Source: Pseudomonas hormoni (GTDB taxonomy: Bacteria > Pseudomonadota > Gammaproteobacteria > Pseudomonadales > Pseudomonadaceae). Taken from it: 64,000 bases of DNA. Both the position numbers and the translations under genes were made by a program. How positions within the stretch are numbered: the first letter of the stretch is position 1; each line of letters begins with the position of its first letter. Positions 54,240-64,000 of the stretch are shown here, in pieces. Under the pieces are notes generated by a model, which saw only the letters and a list, made by a program, of their open reading frames with translations, did not search any database and had not been told where the DNA came from. The DNA lies in the NCBI RefSeq assembly GCF_018502625.1, contig NZ_CP075566.1:2361001-2425000 (forward strand), in the 5' to 3' direction.

Positions 54240-54857
54240 ATGAATCGTCCGCTGTTTGTTTCTCTAGATGGGCCCAAGGGAGCCGGCAAAACCACACTGT
54301 TGGAAGCCGTGACGAAAGTACTGAGGGCAGACAACAAAAAGGTGATCCGTCTTTGCGAGAAAAAAAGCGATCCCTATAGAGGGGAAACAATGACCCTCGT
54401 TAACAAGCTCGTCAGAAATCCCACCCGGGATCTGGAGTTGAGGGTTTGTGAGCGCTTTGCCGATAGCCGTACCTGGATTTCCCGGCACGTGCTGACTAAA
54501 CAGCCACCAGACAGCATCATCCTGATCGATCGCTGGTACCCGTCTGATGCCGCATTTCGCCGGTTAGTCCCGTTTGCAGAAATACTACAGTTGAACATTG
54601 ATCGAAACGTGCAAGTGCCAGACCTGCATGTCGGGGTTGTCACCGCCCCTGAAATTTCGTGGGCAAGGGCTGCAGCACGAGGGCGTGGGCTGGGCAGTAC
54701 TGTGATCCATAAGCTGGAAGAACATGTCGCTTGTACCAAGGCGTTCGAGCAAACAATTGCAGATCACGGCTGGGTTTTATGCCGTAACGAAGGAACGATC
54801 GAAGACGCAACGATGCAGGTTGTTTCCGAGATCTATAGAGTCCTTCGGTGCCCGTAG
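54240..54857 (+). CDS. Thymidylate-kinase-like P-loop NTPase
   Basis: A 205-residue protein of the dTMP/deoxynucleoside kinase fold. The Walker A motif GPKGAGKTT is at residues 11-19, the DR-type motif ILIDRWYPSDAAFRR near 93-107, and a Lys/Arg-rich lid region near ARAAARGRGLGS. It is unlike the housekeeping Tmk, which normally sits beside holB. Codon use and the flanking 54,030-54,240 DNA look less GC-rich than neighbouring genes, so transfer is possible. It stands alone between the LysR gene and the lipid island; the phosphate acceptor is unknown. Confidence 0.75.
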   Translation: MNRPLFVSLDGPKGAGKTTLLEAVTKVLRADNKKVIRLCEKKSDPYRGETMTLVNKLVRNPTRDLELRVCERFADSRTWISRHVLTKQPPDSIILIDRWYPSDAAFRRLVPFAEILQLNIDRNVQVPDLHVGVVTAPEISWARAAARGRGLGSTVIHKLEEHVACTKAFEQTIADHGWVLCRNEGTIEDATMQVVSEIYRVLRCP

Positions 54858-57493: not shown

Positions 57494-58303
57494 ATGGGTC
57501 TATTCGAACAACGCACTCGTACAACTGCAATCCTATTGAGCGCCGGGCAAGGACGACGGCTTCTTCCCTATACGACGAACACTCCCAAGTGCCTGATCGA
57601 GGTCGGTGGCCAGCGGGTTATAGAATGGCAGATTGATGCACTAATGGCCGCCGGGATAAGCCGGATCACCGTTGTGATCGGCTATGGTGCAGAGCAGGTC
57701 GAACGGGTGTTGAACGACCGTTACGGGCCAGGCTTCATTTCTACGATTTACAACCCGTTCTTTGAGGTTGCCGATAATCTGGCCAGTTGTTGGATGGCTC
57801 GGCAAATCATGCATGACGATTTCATCCTGCTTAATGGCGATACGTTATTCGACCAGCCAGTCCTGGAGCGACTACTTGATGCTCCTGCCAGGGCGATAAC
57901 ACTCGCGGTCGACAGGAAACCGGCTTATGACAGCGACGATATGAAAGTCCAACTCATCGGTGATCGAATTAGCGCCATCAGCAAACTGATTCCGCTCGAT
58001 TTTGTCGACGGGGAGTCTATTGGCATGATGCATTTTCAGACAGGGGGAGGACCGCTGTTTCGAAGTGCGCTGGAAGAAAGCATGCGCCGCCCTGAAGCCT
58101 TGCAAATGTGGTACTTGAGCATCATCGATTACCTTGCAGGGACTACTGGACAGGTTTTCGCACAGTCAATCGAAGGGTTGGGCTGGGTGGAGTTGGACTT
58201 TCCTGCCGACCTTAGGGCAGCGCAGGAACTGGTCAAGCCTTGGGCCGACCGCGAGCCTGGCACGGAACTCTCCCTTGCTCAGGGCGAGAAACCACGGTCC
58301 TGA
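57494..58303 (+). CDS. NTP-transferase-family nucleotidyltransferase (LicC/IPCT-like)
   Basis: A 269-residue sugar- or alcohol-phosphate nucleotidyltransferase. The nucleotide-binding signature LSAGQGRRLLPYTTNTPKCLIEVGG spans about residues 15-39 (G-x-G-x-R and PK motifs), and the metal Asp is in ILLNGDTLFD. The family includes choline-phosphate and inositol-phosphate cytidylyltransferases, which supply CDP-alcohols for head-group transfer. It is convergent with the metallophosphoesterase gene, whose 3' end it overlaps by 25 bases. The partner phosphatidyltransferase may be the product of 61922-63106. Confidence 0.82.
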   Translation: MGLFEQRTRTTAILLSAGQGRRLLPYTTNTPKCLIEVGGQRVIEWQIDALMAAGISRITVVIGYGAEQVERVLNDRYGPGFISTIYNPFFEVADNLASCWMARQIMHDDFILLNGDTLFDQPVLERLLDAPARAITLAVDRKPAYDSDDMKVQLIGDRISAISKLIPLDFVDGESIGMMHFQTGGGPLFRSALEESMRRPEALQMWYLSIIDYLAGTTGQVFAQSIEGLGWVELDFPADLRAAQELVKPWADREPGTELSLAQGEKPRS

Positions 58304-59127
58304 CGTGGCGACGCAGACAGCACACAGTCACAATGAAATTCGGCGCTGCGCTCAAAGGCAGCGCGGGAGTCAGAATACTCCCAGCGCTCGATAGCGACTT
58401 GCCTTGTTCGTTTGTCCAGATAAAGTCGATTGAACGAATTGGGGGAATTGCCGCGTATACGTGACGAGAGGGTCGTTCCCGCCTGCACACCCCAGATTTC
58501 CTTGGACAGTCCGGCATATTGCGTGCTGAGTGCCAGCACATAGGGAAGATGTATGTGCCCCCCCATCACCAGATCCAGCCCGGACGAGGCCCAGCGTTCC
58601 AGTGCAGCCCTTGCACCGATCTGCAGATTGCGTCGGTCGGACGCGACGATTGAGCCGAACGGTTGATGAGCGACGACGATGCGCAGCTTTTGCGGATCGC
58701 ACTTCTGTAGCCGCTCAGCCACTTCCTCGACTTGCCGGGCAGTGACCTTGCCTGCTTTGCGGCGTGTAGGGTGCGTTGTATTCAAACCGATGATCAATGC
58801 ATCGTCATTCTCGAAAATGGGTGCGAGATTGCTGTCGATGTACCTGCGATAATTCCCGTAGGGTGAAAATATGCGCGCGAGCAGGTTGTACATGGGGATA
58901 TCGTGGTTGCCGGGTATCGTCAGGACTTGCGGTACTCCGTAGTCCTTGATGCGCTTGATGAATGCCTGCGCCGAGGCGAACTGCTCACGTCTGGCGCGTT
59001 GCGTGATGTCCCCTGTAAAAAGTACCAGATCGGCGCCATGAGCCTTGACGTGCGTTTCGAAAGCTTGCATGACAGGGGGCTGTTCTGTGCCGAAATGCGT
59101 ATCGGAAATATGCAGAAGACTGGTCAT
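58279..59127 (-). CDS. Calcineurin-type metallophosphoesterase
   Basis: A 282-residue cytoplasmic phosphoesterase with all five metal-site motifs in order: DTHFG (about 9-13), GDITQ, GNHD, the isolated His in VVAHQPFG, and GGHIH. No signal peptide. It is last in a run of six leftward genes with lipid functions, so it may remove a phosphate from a lipid or head-group intermediate, as in PgpA/B-type steps or UDP-diacylglucosamine hydrolases (LpxH is in the same superfamily). The substrate is inferred only. Its 3' end overlaps the convergent nucleotidyltransferase gene. Confidence 0.87.
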   Translation of the reverse strand: MTSLLHISDTHFGTEQPPVMQAFETHVKAHGADLVLFTGDITQRARREQFASAQAFIKRIKDYGVPQVLTIPGNHDIPMYNLLARIFSPYGNYRRYIDSNLAPIFENDDALIIGLNTTHPTRRKAGKVTARQVEEVAERLQKCDPQKLRIVVAHQPFGSIVASDRRNLQIGARAALERWASSGLDLVMGGHIHLPYVLALSTQYAGLSKEIWGVQAGTTLSSRIRGNSPNSFNRLYLDKRTRQVAIERWEYSDSRAAFERSAEFHCDCVLSASPRQDRGFSP

Positions 59128-59190
59128 CGTTGCTGGAAATCCTCTATACCCGACAGGGCTCTGCGCTTCATTTTTCGTCCGTTGGCGCCG

Positions 59191-59940
59191 CTATGGTTCA
59201 AGACCACGCTCCCAGGCACGATGGTTGCGGCGCGCGTCCTGAATGAATGGCGACCAGCGAATCAGACGAAGCACGAATCTATTGAGCAGTCTGCCCCGTC
59301 GGTTGAGCGGTCGTTCGACGTCAAGAAACAAAATCACCCGGGTGCCCGTCGTATCGTTCCACACTTGATGCCGGTATGTGTCGTCGAATATCAGGCATTT
59401 GCCGCTTTCCCAATGGCGGATTTGATCGCCGACCTGAATTCGACATCTCTCTTCAGGTTCAGGCACCACGAGCCCTAGATGCACGCGCAAAAGCCCGTTG
59501 TAAGGGCCTCGATGGAGGGGGATATGTTTGCCTGGGGCCAGGATCGAAAAGAACGCGGTAAACATGCCCGGTATCGCTTCTACCACTCTCGTGGTGTCAG
59601 GGCACCCGGCACAGTTCTTATCCATTTTGTAACCATAGCCGAAGAGGAAAAAAGTTTTCCACTTGTCGTCCTGGGTAATGTTGCGCTGATCTTTGGAGAT
59701 GTCTTGAAAGTTGGGCAGCCGGTCGCGGTCATGGAGGACGGCTTCAAGTTCCTTGAGAATGCTCGGCCAGTTCGCTTCCAGCTCGGCAACCCACGCAAAC
59801 TGTCGGGGCTCGAAGAAAGGGCTGTCGCCCACTGTGGAATATCGCAGGATGGCCTTTTCAAGACACTTGATGATCCACAAGCCGAGCGCCACGCTAGGGC
59901 GATGCTTACGCTTTGCTGGTCGATCTTTGCCTCTATTCAT
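59191..59940 (-). CDS. Aspartyl/asparaginyl beta-hydroxylase-family oxygenase (LpxO/OlsC-like)
   Basis: A 249-residue Fe(II)/2-oxoglutarate dioxygenase fold. Iron-ligand histidines are in GKHIPLHRGPYNG and DTYRHQVWN, and the 2-oxoglutarate Arg in GTRVILFLDVERP. The HRGPYNG-x-LRVHLGL block is typical of LpxO (lipid A 2-hydroxylase) and OlsC (ornithine lipid hydroxylase). A hydrophobic N-terminal helix could place it at the membrane. ATG follows AGAGG. Its position inside a phospholipid-type operon suggests hydroxylation of an acyl chain on the lipid made here. Confidence 0.85.
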   Translation of the reverse strand: MNRGKDRPAKRKHRPSVALGLWIIKCLEKAILRYSTVGDSPFFEPRQFAWVAELEANWPSILKELEAVLHDRDRLPNFQDISKDQRNITQDDKWKTFFLFGYGYKMDKNCAGCPDTTRVVEAIPGMFTAFFSILAPGKHIPLHRGPYNGLLRVHLGLVVPEPEERCRIQVGDQIRHWESGKCLIFDDTYRHQVWNDTTGTRVILFLDVERPLNRRGRLLNRFVLRLIRWSPFIQDARRNHRAWERGLEP

Positions 59941-59980
59941 GGGTTGCCTCTGTTGTTCGCGTTGGCGAGGAGCAACGTCA

Positions 59981-60946
59981 TCAGCGTAGCCGGCGGCTTT
60001 TCAACAGGCGCCAGAGCAATGGCCATCCAAAGACCAACGGAAAGCGGCGCAATCGATGGGTCACCACGATGGGCTCACCCAAGTGGCGCTCGAGCTTCCA
60101 GATGAGATAGTCGACGCCGTTTTCGAAGGTGAAAAAAGATTTGACCAATCGCGCTACGTTCAAGGTTCTTCCCTGGATTCGCCTGAGTCTCCACTGTCGT
60201 TCGTAACCTCGGCGCGTTGCGGGCGGGCAAAGGTTGCGATAACAATTCTCTTCGCCCGCACAGGCTGCAATGTGCTTCACAGCAGGCGCGGCGGCTCGGG
60301 TAATGCGCGAATAATAGGCTTTGTCATGCCTGACGAGTTGCCCGGGACGATCGGCTGACTCGGGACGCAACTCGGCTCCGTAGGTCAGCGACAGTGCTCT
60401 TTCCCATAGTGTAAAGCTGTCGAATCGATCCGGTAGATTGGCGACGCAGCGACCCATCAGCGTCATCACGGCTTGAGCCAGTGCGAAATGGATTCGCTTG
60501 TGCGCCTCCTCGTCCTTGAAATAAACGAGCCGGCACGGTTGGGCAAAACGGGCCCAGAGGTAGCTTTGAAACCACGAACCGGTACCCGCCTCGAAGTCCT
60601 GCAGCGAGAGGATGGCGCATTTGGCATGGAGTATTTGTCCATCGGGCGCAGGAACCCTGACGAGGATCACGGTAGGCGGAAGCCATGCGTTGGCGAGCTG
60701 CTGAAAGCGCTTGTGATGAGCGTGAGCGTAGCTATCGACCAGCGCATAAAAGTCGACCATGCCATCGGTGAGATCGCCGTTGCGCAGGCATGAACCGTAG
60801 ACCAGCAGCGCCACCAATGCATCGCCCAGGCGTGTGTGCAATGCCTGGACAATCCCATCCAGCTCGCCGGGCATCGGTTGCATGCATTGCTCCCTGACCT
60901 GTTCAAGCAGGTCCGCGGGGGGCGGCATGGAATCAGAAGCTCGCAT
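59981..60946 (-). CDS. Tam41-like nucleotidyltransferase (possible CDP-diacylglycerol synthase)
   Basis: A 321-residue protein. The segment LVYGSCLRNGDLTDGMVDFYALVDSYAHAH resembles the nucleotidyltransferase core of mitochondrial Tam41/MMP37 (YGSG, then a hydrophobic-D-F pattern followed by V-D and His residues). A later helical half ends LVKSFFTFENGVDYLIWKLERH, also suggestive of Tam41. Tam41 makes CDP-diacylglycerol from phosphatidate and CTP and is unrelated to CdsA. The ATG at 60946 is preferred; an in-frame TTG lies at 60955. The preceding gene (DAG kinase) and the phosphatidyltransferase would supply and use the product. Confidence 0.6.
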   Translation of the reverse strand: MRASDSMPPPADLLEQVREQCMQPMPGELDGIVQALHTRLGDALVALLVYGSCLRNGDLTDGMVDFYALVDSYAHAHHKRFQQLANAWLPPTVILVRVPAPDGQILHAKCAILSLQDFEAGTGSWFQSYLWARFAQPCRLVYFKDEEAHKRIHFALAQAVMTLMGRCVANLPDRFDSFTLWERALSLTYGAELRPESADRPGQLVRHDKAYYSRITRAAAPAVKHIAACAGEENCYRNLCPPATRRGYERQWRLRRIQGRTLNVARLVKSFFTFENGVDYLIWKLERHLGEPIVVTHRLRRFPLVFGWPLLWRLLKSRRLR

Positions 60947-60960
60947 CGATCTCAATTGTC

Positions 60961-61932
60961 CTAAAAGGTCATGAAGCGGATCGGGTCCGTGGCGGCTAAC
61001 GTGATCGTGCCTTGTGCTGCAAAAATTTCACCGTCCAGCACGTACTCGTCAGCACCACCGAGATCCATCCGGGTGAAATTGTGACTGAAGTAACCATCCT
61101 GCTCTTTGATCATCGAGATGGCCCGCCCGCAGAGCAGGAACGGTAGGATGAGGGCCAGTCGTTTGGGCCGATGTGCGATGGCGGTCAGATGAATGGGCTC
61201 CTGTTCGGTGCCCCAATAAGGTCTGCTCCCAGCCAGGAGCCTGTTCAGGGTGGTGGCAAACACCACCAGCCAGTCGCCTTCCCAGACACCATGTTGGGTG
61301 CCCAGGCGAGCAGGCAATGCCCGGAACAGATCGTGCGGCAAGTTGTGCAGCGCTGAAAGCAGCATTCGGCCGAAGGCCAGCGACGGTCCCAGCGCCCCGG
61401 GTACGCGTTTGGGCCGCAGCGTTCGATGGTAGTAGCGCACCCCGTTCACAACAGCGCCAATGCCGAAGAACATCCCGAATCGCGGTCCGTGGCACAGCGG
61501 GTCATCAACCCGAAGTGCCGCGCGGGATACGATTTTTGGCGTGGCGACGTTCCCGGCGAGCCAGTTGGATAAGCTCATCAAGGCCTTTTCGACGCTCAGG
61601 TGCGCGCCCAGATCGATCGCGCTCATGTTAGTGGTGCCCCCCGGTACAACCAGAACGATGGGTAGGCTTGAAGGCTCGCGGCTCAGCAGACTGGAGATGG
61701 CGGCTTGCAGCGTTCCGTCCCCACCCAGGATGACCAGCAGGTCACTTTCCCTGAGCTGGAAGTGGCGCACGGCGTGGGCGATCTGCTGGGGGGTAGTCGC
61801 TTCGAGTACAGCAGCGCCGCGTACGTTTCGAGCGAGCAGGCGGAACTTGGGCAAGGCGCGTCGAATGGTTCCGCTGCAAGGGTTGAGCAAGATTCCGACT
61901 TTCTGTGGCCGCGAGCAGGCGTCATGCATCAT
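60961..61932 (-). CDS. Diacylglycerol-kinase-family lipid kinase
   Basis: A 323-residue DAGK_cat-type kinase. The nucleotide loop LLVILGGDGTLQAAIS and the following VVPGGTTNMSA are clear; the C-terminal beta domain ends DEYVLDGEIFAA as in YegS/DgkB proteins. Start ATG 61932 (or 61929) overlaps the stop of the phosphatidyltransferase gene; an upstream in-frame start is less likely. It would phosphorylate diacylglycerol, a ceramide-like lipid or another lipid alcohol. The stop is 14 bases before the Tam41-like start, so they are co-expressed. Confidence 0.85.
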   Translation of the reverse strand: MMHDACSRPQKVGILLNPCSGTIRRALPKFRLLARNVRGAAVLEATTPQQIAHAVRHFQLRESDLLVILGGDGTLQAAISSLLSREPSSLPIVLVVPGGTTNMSAIDLGAHLSVEKALMSLSNWLAGNVATPKIVSRAALRVDDPLCHGPRFGMFFGIGAVVNGVRYYHRTLRPKRVPGALGPSLAFGRMLLSALHNLPHDLFRALPARLGTQHGVWEGDWLVVFATTLNRLLAGSRPYWGTEQEPIHLTAIAHRPKRLALILPFLLCGRAISMIKEQDGYFSHNFTRMDLGGADEYVLDGEIFAAQGTITLAATDPIRFMTF

Positions 61933-63106
61933 TGAGGCCGGAGCGGGGCGCGAACATCCGCACAATCAAACGGTCGCTTTCGGCGGCCATGTCGATTCGA
62001 CTAAGCCAGGGCTGTGGCGGGTGACCTCGGTGCTTCAAGACAATGGCGGACATCGTGCGAACCCCCAGCACCAGGGTCGAGACGCAGGTCCAGACGGCCA
62101 CCCAGATCAACCCCGTGTCATGGGCATCCACCGCCCATAAGCAGGTCAATATGAGCAAATTGGGATTGCGTCGCGCGGTCACCAGCCTGTTGAGTGAGTC
62201 GAAGGGGCGCCAGAGAAACAGCGAAAAAGGCGCGGCGAACCTGAACGCAACTTCGCACAGCCGACCTGCGACATAGCCCAGGCAAATGGCCCAGAGCACA
62301 GGGCTGAGGGGGATATCCGAGTCCCAGGTTGCCTCATACCCCATTCCCCACGCGATATACCAGAGCGGTGGGTGTATCAGGTCCAGGCCATGGTCGAAAA
62401 TGTTTCCGAAACGAGTGGAGGTCACGGTGACGCGTGCCAGCTTGCCATCCACCGTATCCAGAAACGTCATCAGCCAGCCGGCGACCAGGCCCGCGCCAAA
62501 ATGCCCATGCCAGAACAGAATGCCTGCCAGGATGGCCAGGACATAGCTGGCTGCCGTGACCTGATTGGGACTGAGCCCCAGCCGCACGCACCAGACGGTG
62601 GCCCAGCGAGCCGGGACAGGCCAGATCGCGCGGGTGATGAAGTCGGTGACGCCTTTGTAGGAACCGTTGAACAGAGACTTCTCGAGATGTGCCTGATTGG
62701 CAGCGGTGATTTGCGCGACCCACGGCGGATCGAATTTGCGCAGTTGTGTCTGCATCGCGGTGGCCACGGTGCCGGGAACCACTTTGCGTAATCCGGCTAC
62801 GGCGTCACTGTCCAGGCTGGGCAAGTGTGCGAGCCGGTCGACACTGGCGTGGGCTGCGACGATGGTACCGGTCCGCGGATCCTGTAGAGCGACCTCAGGC
62901 GTTGCCATCAGCCCCCGGAGCACGCGGTCATCGTAAAGGTAATCCTCGCGCAGCAGGACGACTTCACCTTGTGCCGGCAACGGATCGTCTGCATTGCAGA
63001 GATGGGCGTTGGGAAGCTTTGCGAGCATACGGCCCACTCGCTCCCTGGACGTCAGGCCCCACAGCCGCACCGGGCTACTACAGATCAGGTATACGGGAGT
63101 CTTCAT
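61922..63106 (-). CDS. CDP-alcohol phosphatidyltransferase with degenerate nucleotidyltransferase-like N-terminus
   Basis: A 394-residue membrane enzyme. From about residue 165 on, several helices carry the complete CDP-OH signature DTVDGKLAR-x8-GNIFDHGLD (D-x2-D-G-x2-A-R-x8-G-x3-D-x3-D). The first 130 or so residues are soluble and look like a worn NTP-transferase domain: RERVGRMLAKL and VVLLREDYLYDDRVLRGLMA match in outline, but the G-x-G-x-R loop is missing. The same order is found in the IPCT-DIPPS fusion for inositol phospholipid-like products. It overlaps the DAG kinase gene and follows the LptG-like gene by 76 bases. Confidence 0.85.
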   Translation of the reverse strand: MKTPVYLICSSPVRLWGLTSRERVGRMLAKLPNAHLCNADDPLPAQGEVVLLREDYLYDDRVLRGLMATPEVALQDPRTGTIVAAHASVDRLAHLPSLDSDAVAGLRKVVPGTVATAMQTQLRKFDPPWVAQITAANQAHLEKSLFNGSYKGVTDFITRAIWPVPARWATVWCVRLGLSPNQVTAASYVLAILAGILFWHGHFGAGLVAGWLMTFLDTVDGKLARVTVTSTRFGNIFDHGLDLIHPPLWYIAWGMGYEATWDSDIPLSPVLWAICLGYVAGRLCEVAFRFAAPFSLFLWRPFDSLNRLVTARRNPNLLILTCLWAVDAHDTGLIWVAVWTCVSTLVLGVRTMSAIVLKHRGHPPQPWLSRIDMAAESDRLIVRMFAPRSGLNDA

Positions 63107-63182
63107 TGTTCCGCCTGCGCCGAATCACATTGATTGAAGGAGCGGGCGGCAACGCCCTGTCCATTGAATAGCATGACCGGTT

Positions 63183-64000
63183 TCAACGACTGCCCCGGTC
63201 CAGATGTCCCACCATCACAATAGCCACTGCGAGCAAGACCAGTGCCGGCCCCAAAGTAGTAATCAGGATGTTCATCTTTAGCAGTAGACCGAGGTTTACG
63301 ATGATCTGATTACTTACATAGACCATTAACCCGACGAGCGCACCCAATGCCAACCGCGCCCCCAGGTTGGGCGAGCGCGGTTGTGCAAAGGCAAACGGGA
63401 TGGCGAACAGGATCATCGCCAGGGTCAGGATCGGTCGCCCGAGCTTTTGCCACATCGCCATTTCGTATTGTGCCGAGGGCTGGCCCGAGCCTTTGAGGTA
63501 CGCGATGTAACGGTAGAGCTGGCGGGCAGACAGGCTTTCGGTCGGCAGCGTGATGTCGCCCAATCGTGCTCCGCCAAAAATCGAGTGCCAAGGCATATGA
63601 TCGAGTTGCTGCGTAGTTTCGGCGCCCTGGTCCCACTGTTTCACCTGGACATTGTTCAAACGCCATTGGCCTGCGTCCTGTATGTCCGCCGTCTCTGCAA
63701 AGATGTAGGAAACCAGTGAACGGTCATTGTCGAACCTGAAGATCTCGATATTCACCGGCAACCGTTTGTGCTGAAGATTGCCAATACGTACGATCTGATC
63801 GTCCTGTCGAGCCCATACACTCCCTTGATCGTTGCTGGACTGCGCGCCGGCGGCCATTGCCTCGTTGCGCAGTTCCAGGCCATTTTGCTGGAGGGGAGAG
63901 GCCACCCATTCATCCAGCGCCGCCCATGCCAGCGCCAGCGCGAGCCCGGCCAGCGTCGCCGTGAACCCGATCCGGGCAATCGACAGCCCGGTGGCGCGCA
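63183..64000 (-). CDS. LptG-like permease (LptF/LptG family), N-terminal part beyond window
   Basis: The visible 272 residues are the C-terminal part of an LptF/LptG-type inner-membrane subunit: a transmembrane helix leading to EWVASPLQQNGLELRNEAMA, the periplasmic beta-jellyroll (SVWARQDDQIVRIGNLQH onward), and three closing helices (YEMAMWQKLGRPILTLAMILFAIPFAFAQPRS; LVGLMVYVSNQIIVNLG; LGPALVLLAVAIVMV). The frame is open through base 63998. The housekeeping lptF-lptG pair of Pseudomonas normally lies near pepA, so this looks like an extra paralogue tied to the lipid genes that follow. Confidence 0.87.
   Translation of the reverse strand, partial: RATGLSIARIGFTATLAGLALALAWAALDEWVASPLQQNGLELRNEAMAAGAQSSNDQGSVWARQDDQIVRIGNLQHKRLPVNIEIFRFDNDRSLVSYIFAETADIQDAGQWRLNNVQVKQWDQGAETTQQLDHMPWHSIFGGARLGDITLPTESLSARQLYRYIAYLKGSGQPSAQYEMAMWQKLGRPILTLAMILFAIPFAFAQPRSPNLGARLALGALVGLMVYVSNQIIVNLGLLLKMNILITTLGPALVLLAVAIVMVGHLDRGSR

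What the first reader, a model, noticed from the sequence alone, without database searches (positions are those of the whole stretch)
58279..64000. Six-gene leftward operon that looks like a private phospholipid pathway
Order of transcription: LptG-like permease, CDP-alcohol phosphatidyltransferase, DAG-kinase-like, Tam41-like nucleotidyltransferase, LpxO/OlsC-like hydroxylase, metallophosphoesterase, with overlaps or gaps under 80 bases. Known family roles line up as lipid phosphorylation, CDP-lipid formation, head-group transfer, phosphate removal, acyl hydroxylation and transport. A convergent NTP-transferase could supply a CDP-activated head group. Housekeeping genes for these steps (cdsA, pgsA, lptFG) are elsewhere in Pseudomonas, so this should make a distinct lipid. 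I know of no described system with this composition.
Basis: partly seen in the sequence, partly recalled or inferred. Interest (0 to 1): 0.85.

Follow-up and report, generated by a model that had tools for sequence, protein, structure and literature searches.

The report
Sphingolipid synthesis and export gene cluster
These genes sit beside a serine palmitoyltransferase in a Pseudomonas gene cluster whose counterparts are known from Caulobacter, so the bacterium likely makes and exports a ceramide-based outer-membrane lipid with a phosphate-containing head group, with added genes predicted to hydroxylate it, put sugar on it and flip it across the membrane.

Summary
The operon is real but is cut by the window's right edge. 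Beyond it lie lptF2, a CofC-like nucleotidyltransferase and a ceramide-synthase-like gene, then divergently an acyl ligase, ceramide-reductase-like epimerase, acyl carrier protein, serine palmitoyltransferase (E=3e-123 to a solved SPT) and an MsbA-like ABC exporter. This is the Caulobacter-type ceramide phosphoglycerate cluster, already reported in print for Azotobacter vinelandii and Pseudomonas luteola. The backbone is very likely ceramide, not diacylglycerol, and "no described system" is wrong; the dedicated lipid pathway, CDP-activated head group and own Lpt permeases hold up. New here: an OlsC-like hydroxylase in 7 of 398 sampled Pseudomonas genomes, all 7 among the 9 with cpgC (not adjacent in two); a two-domain (GT8 + GT-B fold) protein that, with cpgA, a close cpgD and a phosphoesterase, is present or absent as a set (4 versus 5 of those 9); and an ABC exporter at the cluster in 17 of 18 genomes, a candidate sphingolipid flippase. 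New variant of a known kind; no lipid was measured.

The parts
63183..64000 (-). lptG2, LptG-like permease (3' part; gene runs on to about 64265 outside the window; lptF2, cofC-like and cerS-like genes follow further right)
   Evidence: two LptF/G pairs in the genome
61922..63106 (-). cpgA-like: N-terminal domain with a nucleotidyltransferase-like fold plus CDP-alcohol phosphotransferase membrane domain
60961..61932 (-). cpgB-like lipid kinase (predicted ceramide kinase), GGDG present, CxxxCxxC absent
   Evidence: PMC10331486 passages
59981..60946 (-). cpgC-like, Tam41-type nucleotidyltransferase
59191..59940 (-). OlsC-like Asp/Arg-hydroxylase-family protein, predicted acyl 2-hydroxylase of the ceramide
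58279..59127 (-). calcineurin-type metallophosphoesterase; possible counterpart of CC_1158 (orthology not shown)
57494..58303 (+). cpgD-like nucleotidyltransferase, predicted CTP:phosphoglycerate cytidylyltransferase
   Evidence: PMC12275187
54920..57280 (-). ELM1/GtrOC1-type protein: GT8-like (GT-A) N domain (about 47-253) and GT-B-like C domain (about 417-782), predicted glycosyltransferase of the same lipid

Best explanation
The six genes and their convergent neighbour are the right half of a cluster that also encodes serine palmitoyltransferase, and together they likely build a ceramide, phosphorylate it, join it to a CDP-activated (probably phosphoglycerate) head group and export it to the outer membrane, as is known or proposed for the homologous Caulobacter cluster. 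Steps: AasR/AcpR load a fatty acid and Spt condenses it with serine (inferred from family and order); CerS-like and CerR-like proteins complete ceramide (inferred); CpgB phosphorylates ceramide (inferred; shown for the Caulobacter enzyme in print); CpgC (Tam41-type) and the CofC-like protein attach or activate glycerate (order open in print as well); CpgD makes CDP-glycerate and CpgA transfers it to form the second phosphoglycerate (inferred; CpgD activity shown in Caulobacter); the phosphoesterase trims a phosphate (guess); the OlsC-like enzyme 2-hydroxylates the N-acyl chain (inferred); the ELM1-type double glycosyltransferase adds sugar to the CPG2-type lipid (inferred, weakest step); the ABC exporter flips it and LptF2G2, with shared LptB and the only LptC found, carry it outward (inferred). 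What is shown here is the gene content, the family assignments, the conserved order and the co-distribution.
For: Spt E=3.3e-123 to a solved SPT 2x8u. aasR, cerR, acpR and spt adjoin, the set the paper lists for CC_1165-CC_1162. Same core order in P. luteola L030 and A. vinelandii L034, which PMC11324152 names as carriers of the CPG/CPG2 genes. In the 50 of 80 named loci with enough flank, cpgC has cerS in 42, cofC in 43, lptF2 in 37, lptG2 in 38, cpgB in 43, aasR in 36. CDP-alcohol signature in the window CpgA and in all 36 relatives of over 90% coverage (L009 and L019 are one genome); GGDG in 67 of 73 CpgB and GxGxR..PK in 26 of 26 CpgD of over 80% coverage. CpgA fold = AF2299/IPCT-DIPPS. 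In those 50 loci cpgA and cpgD are both present in 25, cpgA only 4, cpgD only 1, neither 20. Hydroxylase (E<=1e-80) in 7 of 398 Pseudomonas genomes, all inside the 9 with cpgC. ABC exporter (E<=1e-60) in 17 of 18 genomes, all 17 inside or within 2.4 kb of the fetched locus.
Against: No lipid was measured. No Caulobacter sequence was fetched, so orthology to it goes through P. luteola/A. vinelandii and families. The query's own CpgB and CpgC matches to curated models are weak (below NCBIfam cut-offs; Tam41 Pfam E=0.25). cpgB is absent from 6 of the 50 loci and was not found in one whole genome of 9 (G273), so either another kinase serves there or the step differs. No second LptC in the genome. 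The 4-of-9 pattern may reflect one ancestral split, and P. luteola's visible locus has cpgA, cpgD and the glycosyltransferase but no phosphoesterase. In the wide protein database the hydroxylase has 1716 relatives and CpgC 862 (capped candidates), so beyond Pseudomonas the hydroxylase subfamily may occur without the cluster; their contexts were not looked at.
Confidence: 0.87

Rival explanations
1. A private glycerophospholipid pathway on diacylglycerol.
For: The families (DAG kinase, Tam41, CDP-alcohol transferase) classically act on diacylglycerol lipids (families; the roles recalled); Caulobacter CpgB also phosphorylates DAG in vitro (PMC10331486 passages).
Against: Contiguous spt, acpR, aasR, cerR- and cerS-like genes and synteny with described sphingolipid clusters.
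Confidence: 0.05
2. Plain CPG/CPG2 as in Caulobacter: the hydroxylase and the ELM1-type glycosyltransferase act on LPS, ornithine lipid or something else.
For: Deletion of the ELM1-like 2903 of Acinetobacter truncates the LOS core (PMC10936431 passages); OlsC and LpxO, the nearest models, act on other lipids; the hydroxylase subfamily is wider than CpgC in the protein database.
Against: In the 398 Pseudomonas genomes the hydroxylase is confined to cluster carriers, even where it is not adjacent; the ELM1-type gene is in 4 of 398, the same four that have cpgA and a close cpgD. The genome has two separate LpxO-like proteins.
Confidence: 0.3
3. A phosphosphingolipid with another head group (for example phosphoglycerol or a sugar phosphate), because CpgD-like enzymes differ in substrate.
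For: Among solved structures the CpgD-like protein is nearest LicC (phosphocholine, 7e-15), then MurU-type enzymes (8e-14, 3e-11) and 4jd0, the inositol-phosphate enzyme (1.5e-10); none settles the substrate.
Against: The same gene set in species for which CPG2 is predicted in print.
Confidence: 0.2

Closest known systems
Caulobacter crescentus ceramide phosphoglycerate cluster CC_1168-CC_1152 (PMC11324152: outline and abstract, section 8 part 1 of 2, sections 9 and 13, and passages seen)
   Same: spt with acpR, cerR, aasR; cerS; cpgA, cpgB, cpgC, cpgD; a CofC-like protein; a second LptF/LptG pair; a phosphoesterase gene
   Different: Adds an OlsC-like hydroxylase, an ELM1-type double-domain protein and an MsbA-like exporter; one LptC only in the genome. 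In Caulobacter hydroxylation is ascribed to CC_0202, a DesA-type enzyme elsewhere in the genome, and CC_1166 is named as a potential flippase
Azotobacter vinelandii and Pseudomonas luteola clusters (same paper, section 9; loci L034, L030)
   Same: Same core order cerS-cofC-lptF2-lptG2-cpgA-cpgB-cpgC-hydroxylase, 48-76% protein identity (second hydroxylase left out); both also carry the ELM1-type gene and the exporter
   Different: They have a second, oppositely oriented hydroxylase (47-50%) that the window lacks; cpgD lies between cofC and lptF2 there
Pseudomonas fluorescens SgaAB polyketide sphingolipids (PMC12134224, passages seen)
   Same: Sphingolipid made by a Pseudomonas
   Different: Iterative PKS route; no PKS-sized ORF was seen in the stretch read here
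AF2299 and IPCT-DIPPS of Archaeoglobus (4o6n, 4mnd)
   Different: The soluble domain of CpgA lacks the GxGxR...PK pattern (0 of 36 relatives have it), which the separate CpgD keeps; the substrates need not be the same
OlsC and LpxO acyl 2-hydroxylases
   Same: Asp_Arg_Hydrox family; both histidine-containing motifs (motifs recalled) are in the window protein
   Different: Below both NCBIfam cut-offs (278.8 of 450; 133.7 of 500); own genomic context

Membership tests
Caulobacter-type phosphosphingolipid (CPG/CPG2) cluster | Serine palmitoyltransferase with an acyl carrier protein and an acyl ligase | tested here: met
   (E=3.3e-123 to 2x8u; TFSKS motif; 87-aa acyl-carrier-like protein between cerR and spt, told by sequence and place)
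Caulobacter-type phosphosphingolipid (CPG/CPG2) cluster | Ceramide synthase- and reductase-like genes | tested here: met
   GNAT-type 384 aa (weak Pfam, E=0.0028) and NAD epimerase 305 aa in conserved positions; met by family and position only
Caulobacter-type phosphosphingolipid (CPG/CPG2) cluster | CpgB ceramide kinase: DAGK domain, GGDG, no CxxxCxxC | tested here: met
   criteria from PMC10331486 passages; 6 of 73 relatives lack GGDG
Caulobacter-type phosphosphingolipid (CPG/CPG2) cluster | CpgD active-site R, K, D of the IMPCT type | tested here: met
   alignment to 4jd0; residues named in PMC12275187
Caulobacter-type phosphosphingolipid (CPG/CPG2) cluster | CpgA CDP-alcohol phosphotransferase signature | tested here: met
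Caulobacter-type phosphosphingolipid (CPG/CPG2) cluster | CpgC with CDP-DAG-synthase (Tam41) type domain | tested here: met
   profile to 6ig2 E=9e-6, (single-sequence Pfam E=0.25)
Caulobacter-type phosphosphingolipid (CPG/CPG2) cluster | CC_1153 CofC-like nucleotidyltransferase | tested here: met
   NTP_transf_3 2e-15; F420_cofC model E=0.00045, below its cut-off
Caulobacter-type phosphosphingolipid (CPG/CPG2) cluster | CC_1158 phosphoesterase ortholog | tested here: inconclusive
   A calcineurin-type phosphoesterase is present and tracks cpgA/cpgD in 9 Pseudomonas genomes; no Caulobacter sequence compared, and the paper reports no ortholog in A. vinelandii, whose locus has a 64% relative of ours
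Caulobacter-type phosphosphingolipid (CPG/CPG2) cluster | Second LptF/LptG pair | tested here: met
   four genes, two pairs
Caulobacter-type phosphosphingolipid (CPG/CPG2) cluster | Second LptC (CC_1168) | tested here: not met
   one LptC; the paper reports the same lack in A. vinelandii and P. luteola, so it does not define the gamma branch
Caulobacter-type phosphosphingolipid (CPG/CPG2) cluster | Direct sequence orthology to the Caulobacter proteins | not tested
   no Caulobacter locus among the 80 of 160 kept
Caulobacter-type phosphosphingolipid (CPG/CPG2) cluster | Production of CPG or CPG2 | not testable with these tools
   needs lipidomics
OlsC equivalog (NF052565) | Score over curated cut-off 450 | tested here: not met
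   278.8 bits
LpxO equivalog (NF033391) | Score over curated cut-off 500 | tested here: not met
   133.7 bits
SgaAB polyketide sphingolipid cluster | Adjacent iterative PKS gene | tested here: not met
   no PKS-sized ORF (this locus only; rest of genome not searched)

The most novel reading that the evidence does not exclude
Pseudomonadaceae make a new outer-membrane lipid class, a 2-hydroxylated and glycosylated ceramide phosphoglycerate, built in two separable modules (first phosphoglycerate: cpgB, cpgC, hydroxylase; second: cpgA, cpgD, double glycosyltransferase), flipped by a dedicated MsbA-like exporter, the missing bacterial sphingolipid flippase, and carried out by an Lpt line that borrows the LPS LptC.
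Probability: 0.3. Interest if true: 0.7.

Novelty: new variant of a known kind. Interest (0 to 1): 0.45.

Why it matters
In Caulobacter the anionic sphingolipid CPG2 supports survival without LPS (PMC12275187). How these lipids cross the envelope was stated as unknown in 2024 (PMC11087976: no flippases or lipid transporters yet identified; PMC11324152 names CC_1166 as a potential flippase but reports no ortholog of it in A. vinelandii or P. luteola), and the order of the head-group enzymes is open too. The gamma-proteobacterial cluster names a concrete exporter candidate, a hydroxylase candidate and a glycosyltransferase candidate, and Pseudomonas genomes that lack the cpgA/cpgD set offer a ready test of which genes make the first and which the second head-group unit.

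Tried and rejected
Considered and rejected: a diacylglycerol-based pathway (no support once the spt side was read); a PKS sphingolipid locus (no PKS ORF seen). Considered and left open: phosphoesterase = CC_1158. Single-sequence Pfam and NCBIfam scans did not place the Tam41-like protein; a profile did. phmmer of the kinase against solved structures gave nothing at E<=0.001. NCBIfam had no model for the ELM1-type protein; its fold did. The thymidylate-kinase-like gene 54240-54857 had no match in any of the 88 loci L008-L095, many of which are too short to show it, and was dropped from the cluster. Paper searches: LpxO-type hydroxylase with bacterial sphingolipids (one paper, PMC3972451, listing only, not opened); ELM1-type protein (one paper, passages read, on LOS); LptG or exporter (listings, passages of PMC11324152 and PMC11087976); (listing). 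In what was seen none gives these three proteins this role; subscription papers are not in that library, and supplementary files were not open to me. Limits: one search kept the best 80 of 160 loci; one search used 50 of 80 with at least 7.5 kb upstream and 1.2 kb downstream of cpgC, and looked only within the fetched stretch; one search's tree used cluster hydroxylases of over 80% coverage from L016-L095, 20 of the 120 listed proteins, the window and two own paralogs (pieces in L026 and L036 dropped); one search scored at most two candidates per genome; one search's second look covers Foldseek's own top 1000.
Full report
What was checked. The window is bases 2361001-2425000 of a 6.48 Mb one-contig genome. 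It is a Pseudomonas: genomes of the same genus have contigs with the same lengths as named Pseudomonas records, for example the 2,245,851-base contig of P. umsongensis DSM 16611. All six leftward genes and the convergent NTP transferase are present as described. The operon is cut by the window end. Reading on (window coordinate = L005 coordinate + 54000), lptG2 starts near 64265, overlaps lptF2, and is preceded by a CofC-like nucleotidyltransferase and a 384-aa GNAT-type protein. Divergently come a 578-aa acyl-AMP ligase, a 305-aa NAD epimerase, an 87-aa acyl-carrier-like protein, a 402-aa alpha-oxoamine synthase and a 575-aa ABC exporter.

What it is. The oxoamine synthase matches solved serine palmitoyltransferases at E=3e-123. 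Ligase, epimerase, acyl carrier and spt adjoin, as the ceramide genes CC_1165-CC_1162 of Caulobacter do; CC_1162 is spt in the paper, and I match the other three to aasR, cerR and acpR by the order in which it lists them. The kinase, CDP-alcohol transferase, Tam41-type protein, two nucleotidyltransferases, LptF2 and LptG2 match CC_1160, 1159, 1161, 1153, 1152, 1156 and 1155 by family (PMC11324152: outline and abstract, section 8 part 1 of 2, sections 9 and 13, passages). That paper names A. vinelandii and P. luteola as having the genes in one region. Both loci were fetched here (L034, L030) and show the same core order, cerS-cofC-lptF2-lptG2-cpgA-cpgB-cpgC-hydroxylase, with 48-76% identity to the window genome's proteins (second hydroxylase left out); cpgD and the ELM1-type gene lie at other places in them. 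So the finding is a further member of a described kind, and the lipid is very likely a phosphosphingolipid.

Distribution. In 398 sampled Pseudomonas genomes the CpgC-like gene occurs in 9. The cluster-type hydroxylase (E<=1e-80) occurs in 7 of 398, all among those 9; in G037 it lies about 136 kb from cpgC, and in the draft genome G396 on another contig and not within 10 kb downstream of cpgC (L027), so adjacency alone does not explain the match. The two without it, G263 and G273, carry cpgA, cpgC, cpgD, the phosphoesterase and the ELM1-type gene; G263 keeps only a hydroxylase fragment between cpgC and the phosphoesterase. The ELM1-type gene occurs in 4 of 398, and the same four of nine have cpgA, a close cpgD (83-100% identity, all other matches at most 37%) and the phosphoesterase. 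cpgB is in 8 of 9. Chance figures (1e-13, 1e-7, 0.008) ignore common descent: the four are close relatives, so the all-or-none pattern may be one or two events. Outside this sample the set is not strict: among 50 of 80 named loci with enough flank, cpgA and cpgD are both present in 25, cpgA alone in 4, cpgD alone in 1, neither in 20, and P. luteola's visible locus has no phosphoesterase.

Export. The genome has two LptF/LptG pairs but one LptC, so LptF2G2 would have to share LptC or do without. This fits the reported lack of CC_1168 orthologs in A. vinelandii and P. luteola.

Which steps are shown. Shown: gene content, order, family, motifs, predicted folds, co-distribution. Inferred: every chemical step, the head group, hydroxyl position, glycosylation and flipping. 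The Caulobacter proteins were not aligned directly.

Noticed in passing
   Followed up: partly
L022, L026, L028, L029, L030, L033, L034, L039, L086: A second, oppositely oriented hydroxylase (46-52% to the window's) follows the first; in L026 it is in two pieces.
   Followed up: partly
L008 (G263) about 1308: Remnant of the hydroxylase between phosphoesterase and cpgC; no hydroxylase ORF is seen at that place in L017-L019 either.
   Followed up: partly
window 54240-54857 (+): Thymidylate-kinase-like P-loop protein beside the ELM1-type gene, with no counterpart in the other loci scanned.
   Followed up: no
G000:C1:2265486 and 866398 (L097, L098): Two LpxO-like hydroxylases elsewhere in the same genome; one is over and one under the LpxO cut-off.
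   Followed up: partly
G273 cpgD, G263 phosphoesterase, G396 cpgB: Matches flagged with one in-frame stop; possibly decaying copies or matches running past the gene end.
   Followed up: no
L034 (A. vinelandii CA): The aasR-like gene matches in two separate frames (63% and 31% of the query), which may be a frameshift or a sequencing artefact.
   Followed up: no
L047, L063, L069, L082, L087, L090, L092: In more distant Gammaproteobacteria an ELM1-type gene (31-44% over part of the protein) directly follows cpgC on the same strand, a hint that such proteins go with this lipid widely.
   Followed up: no
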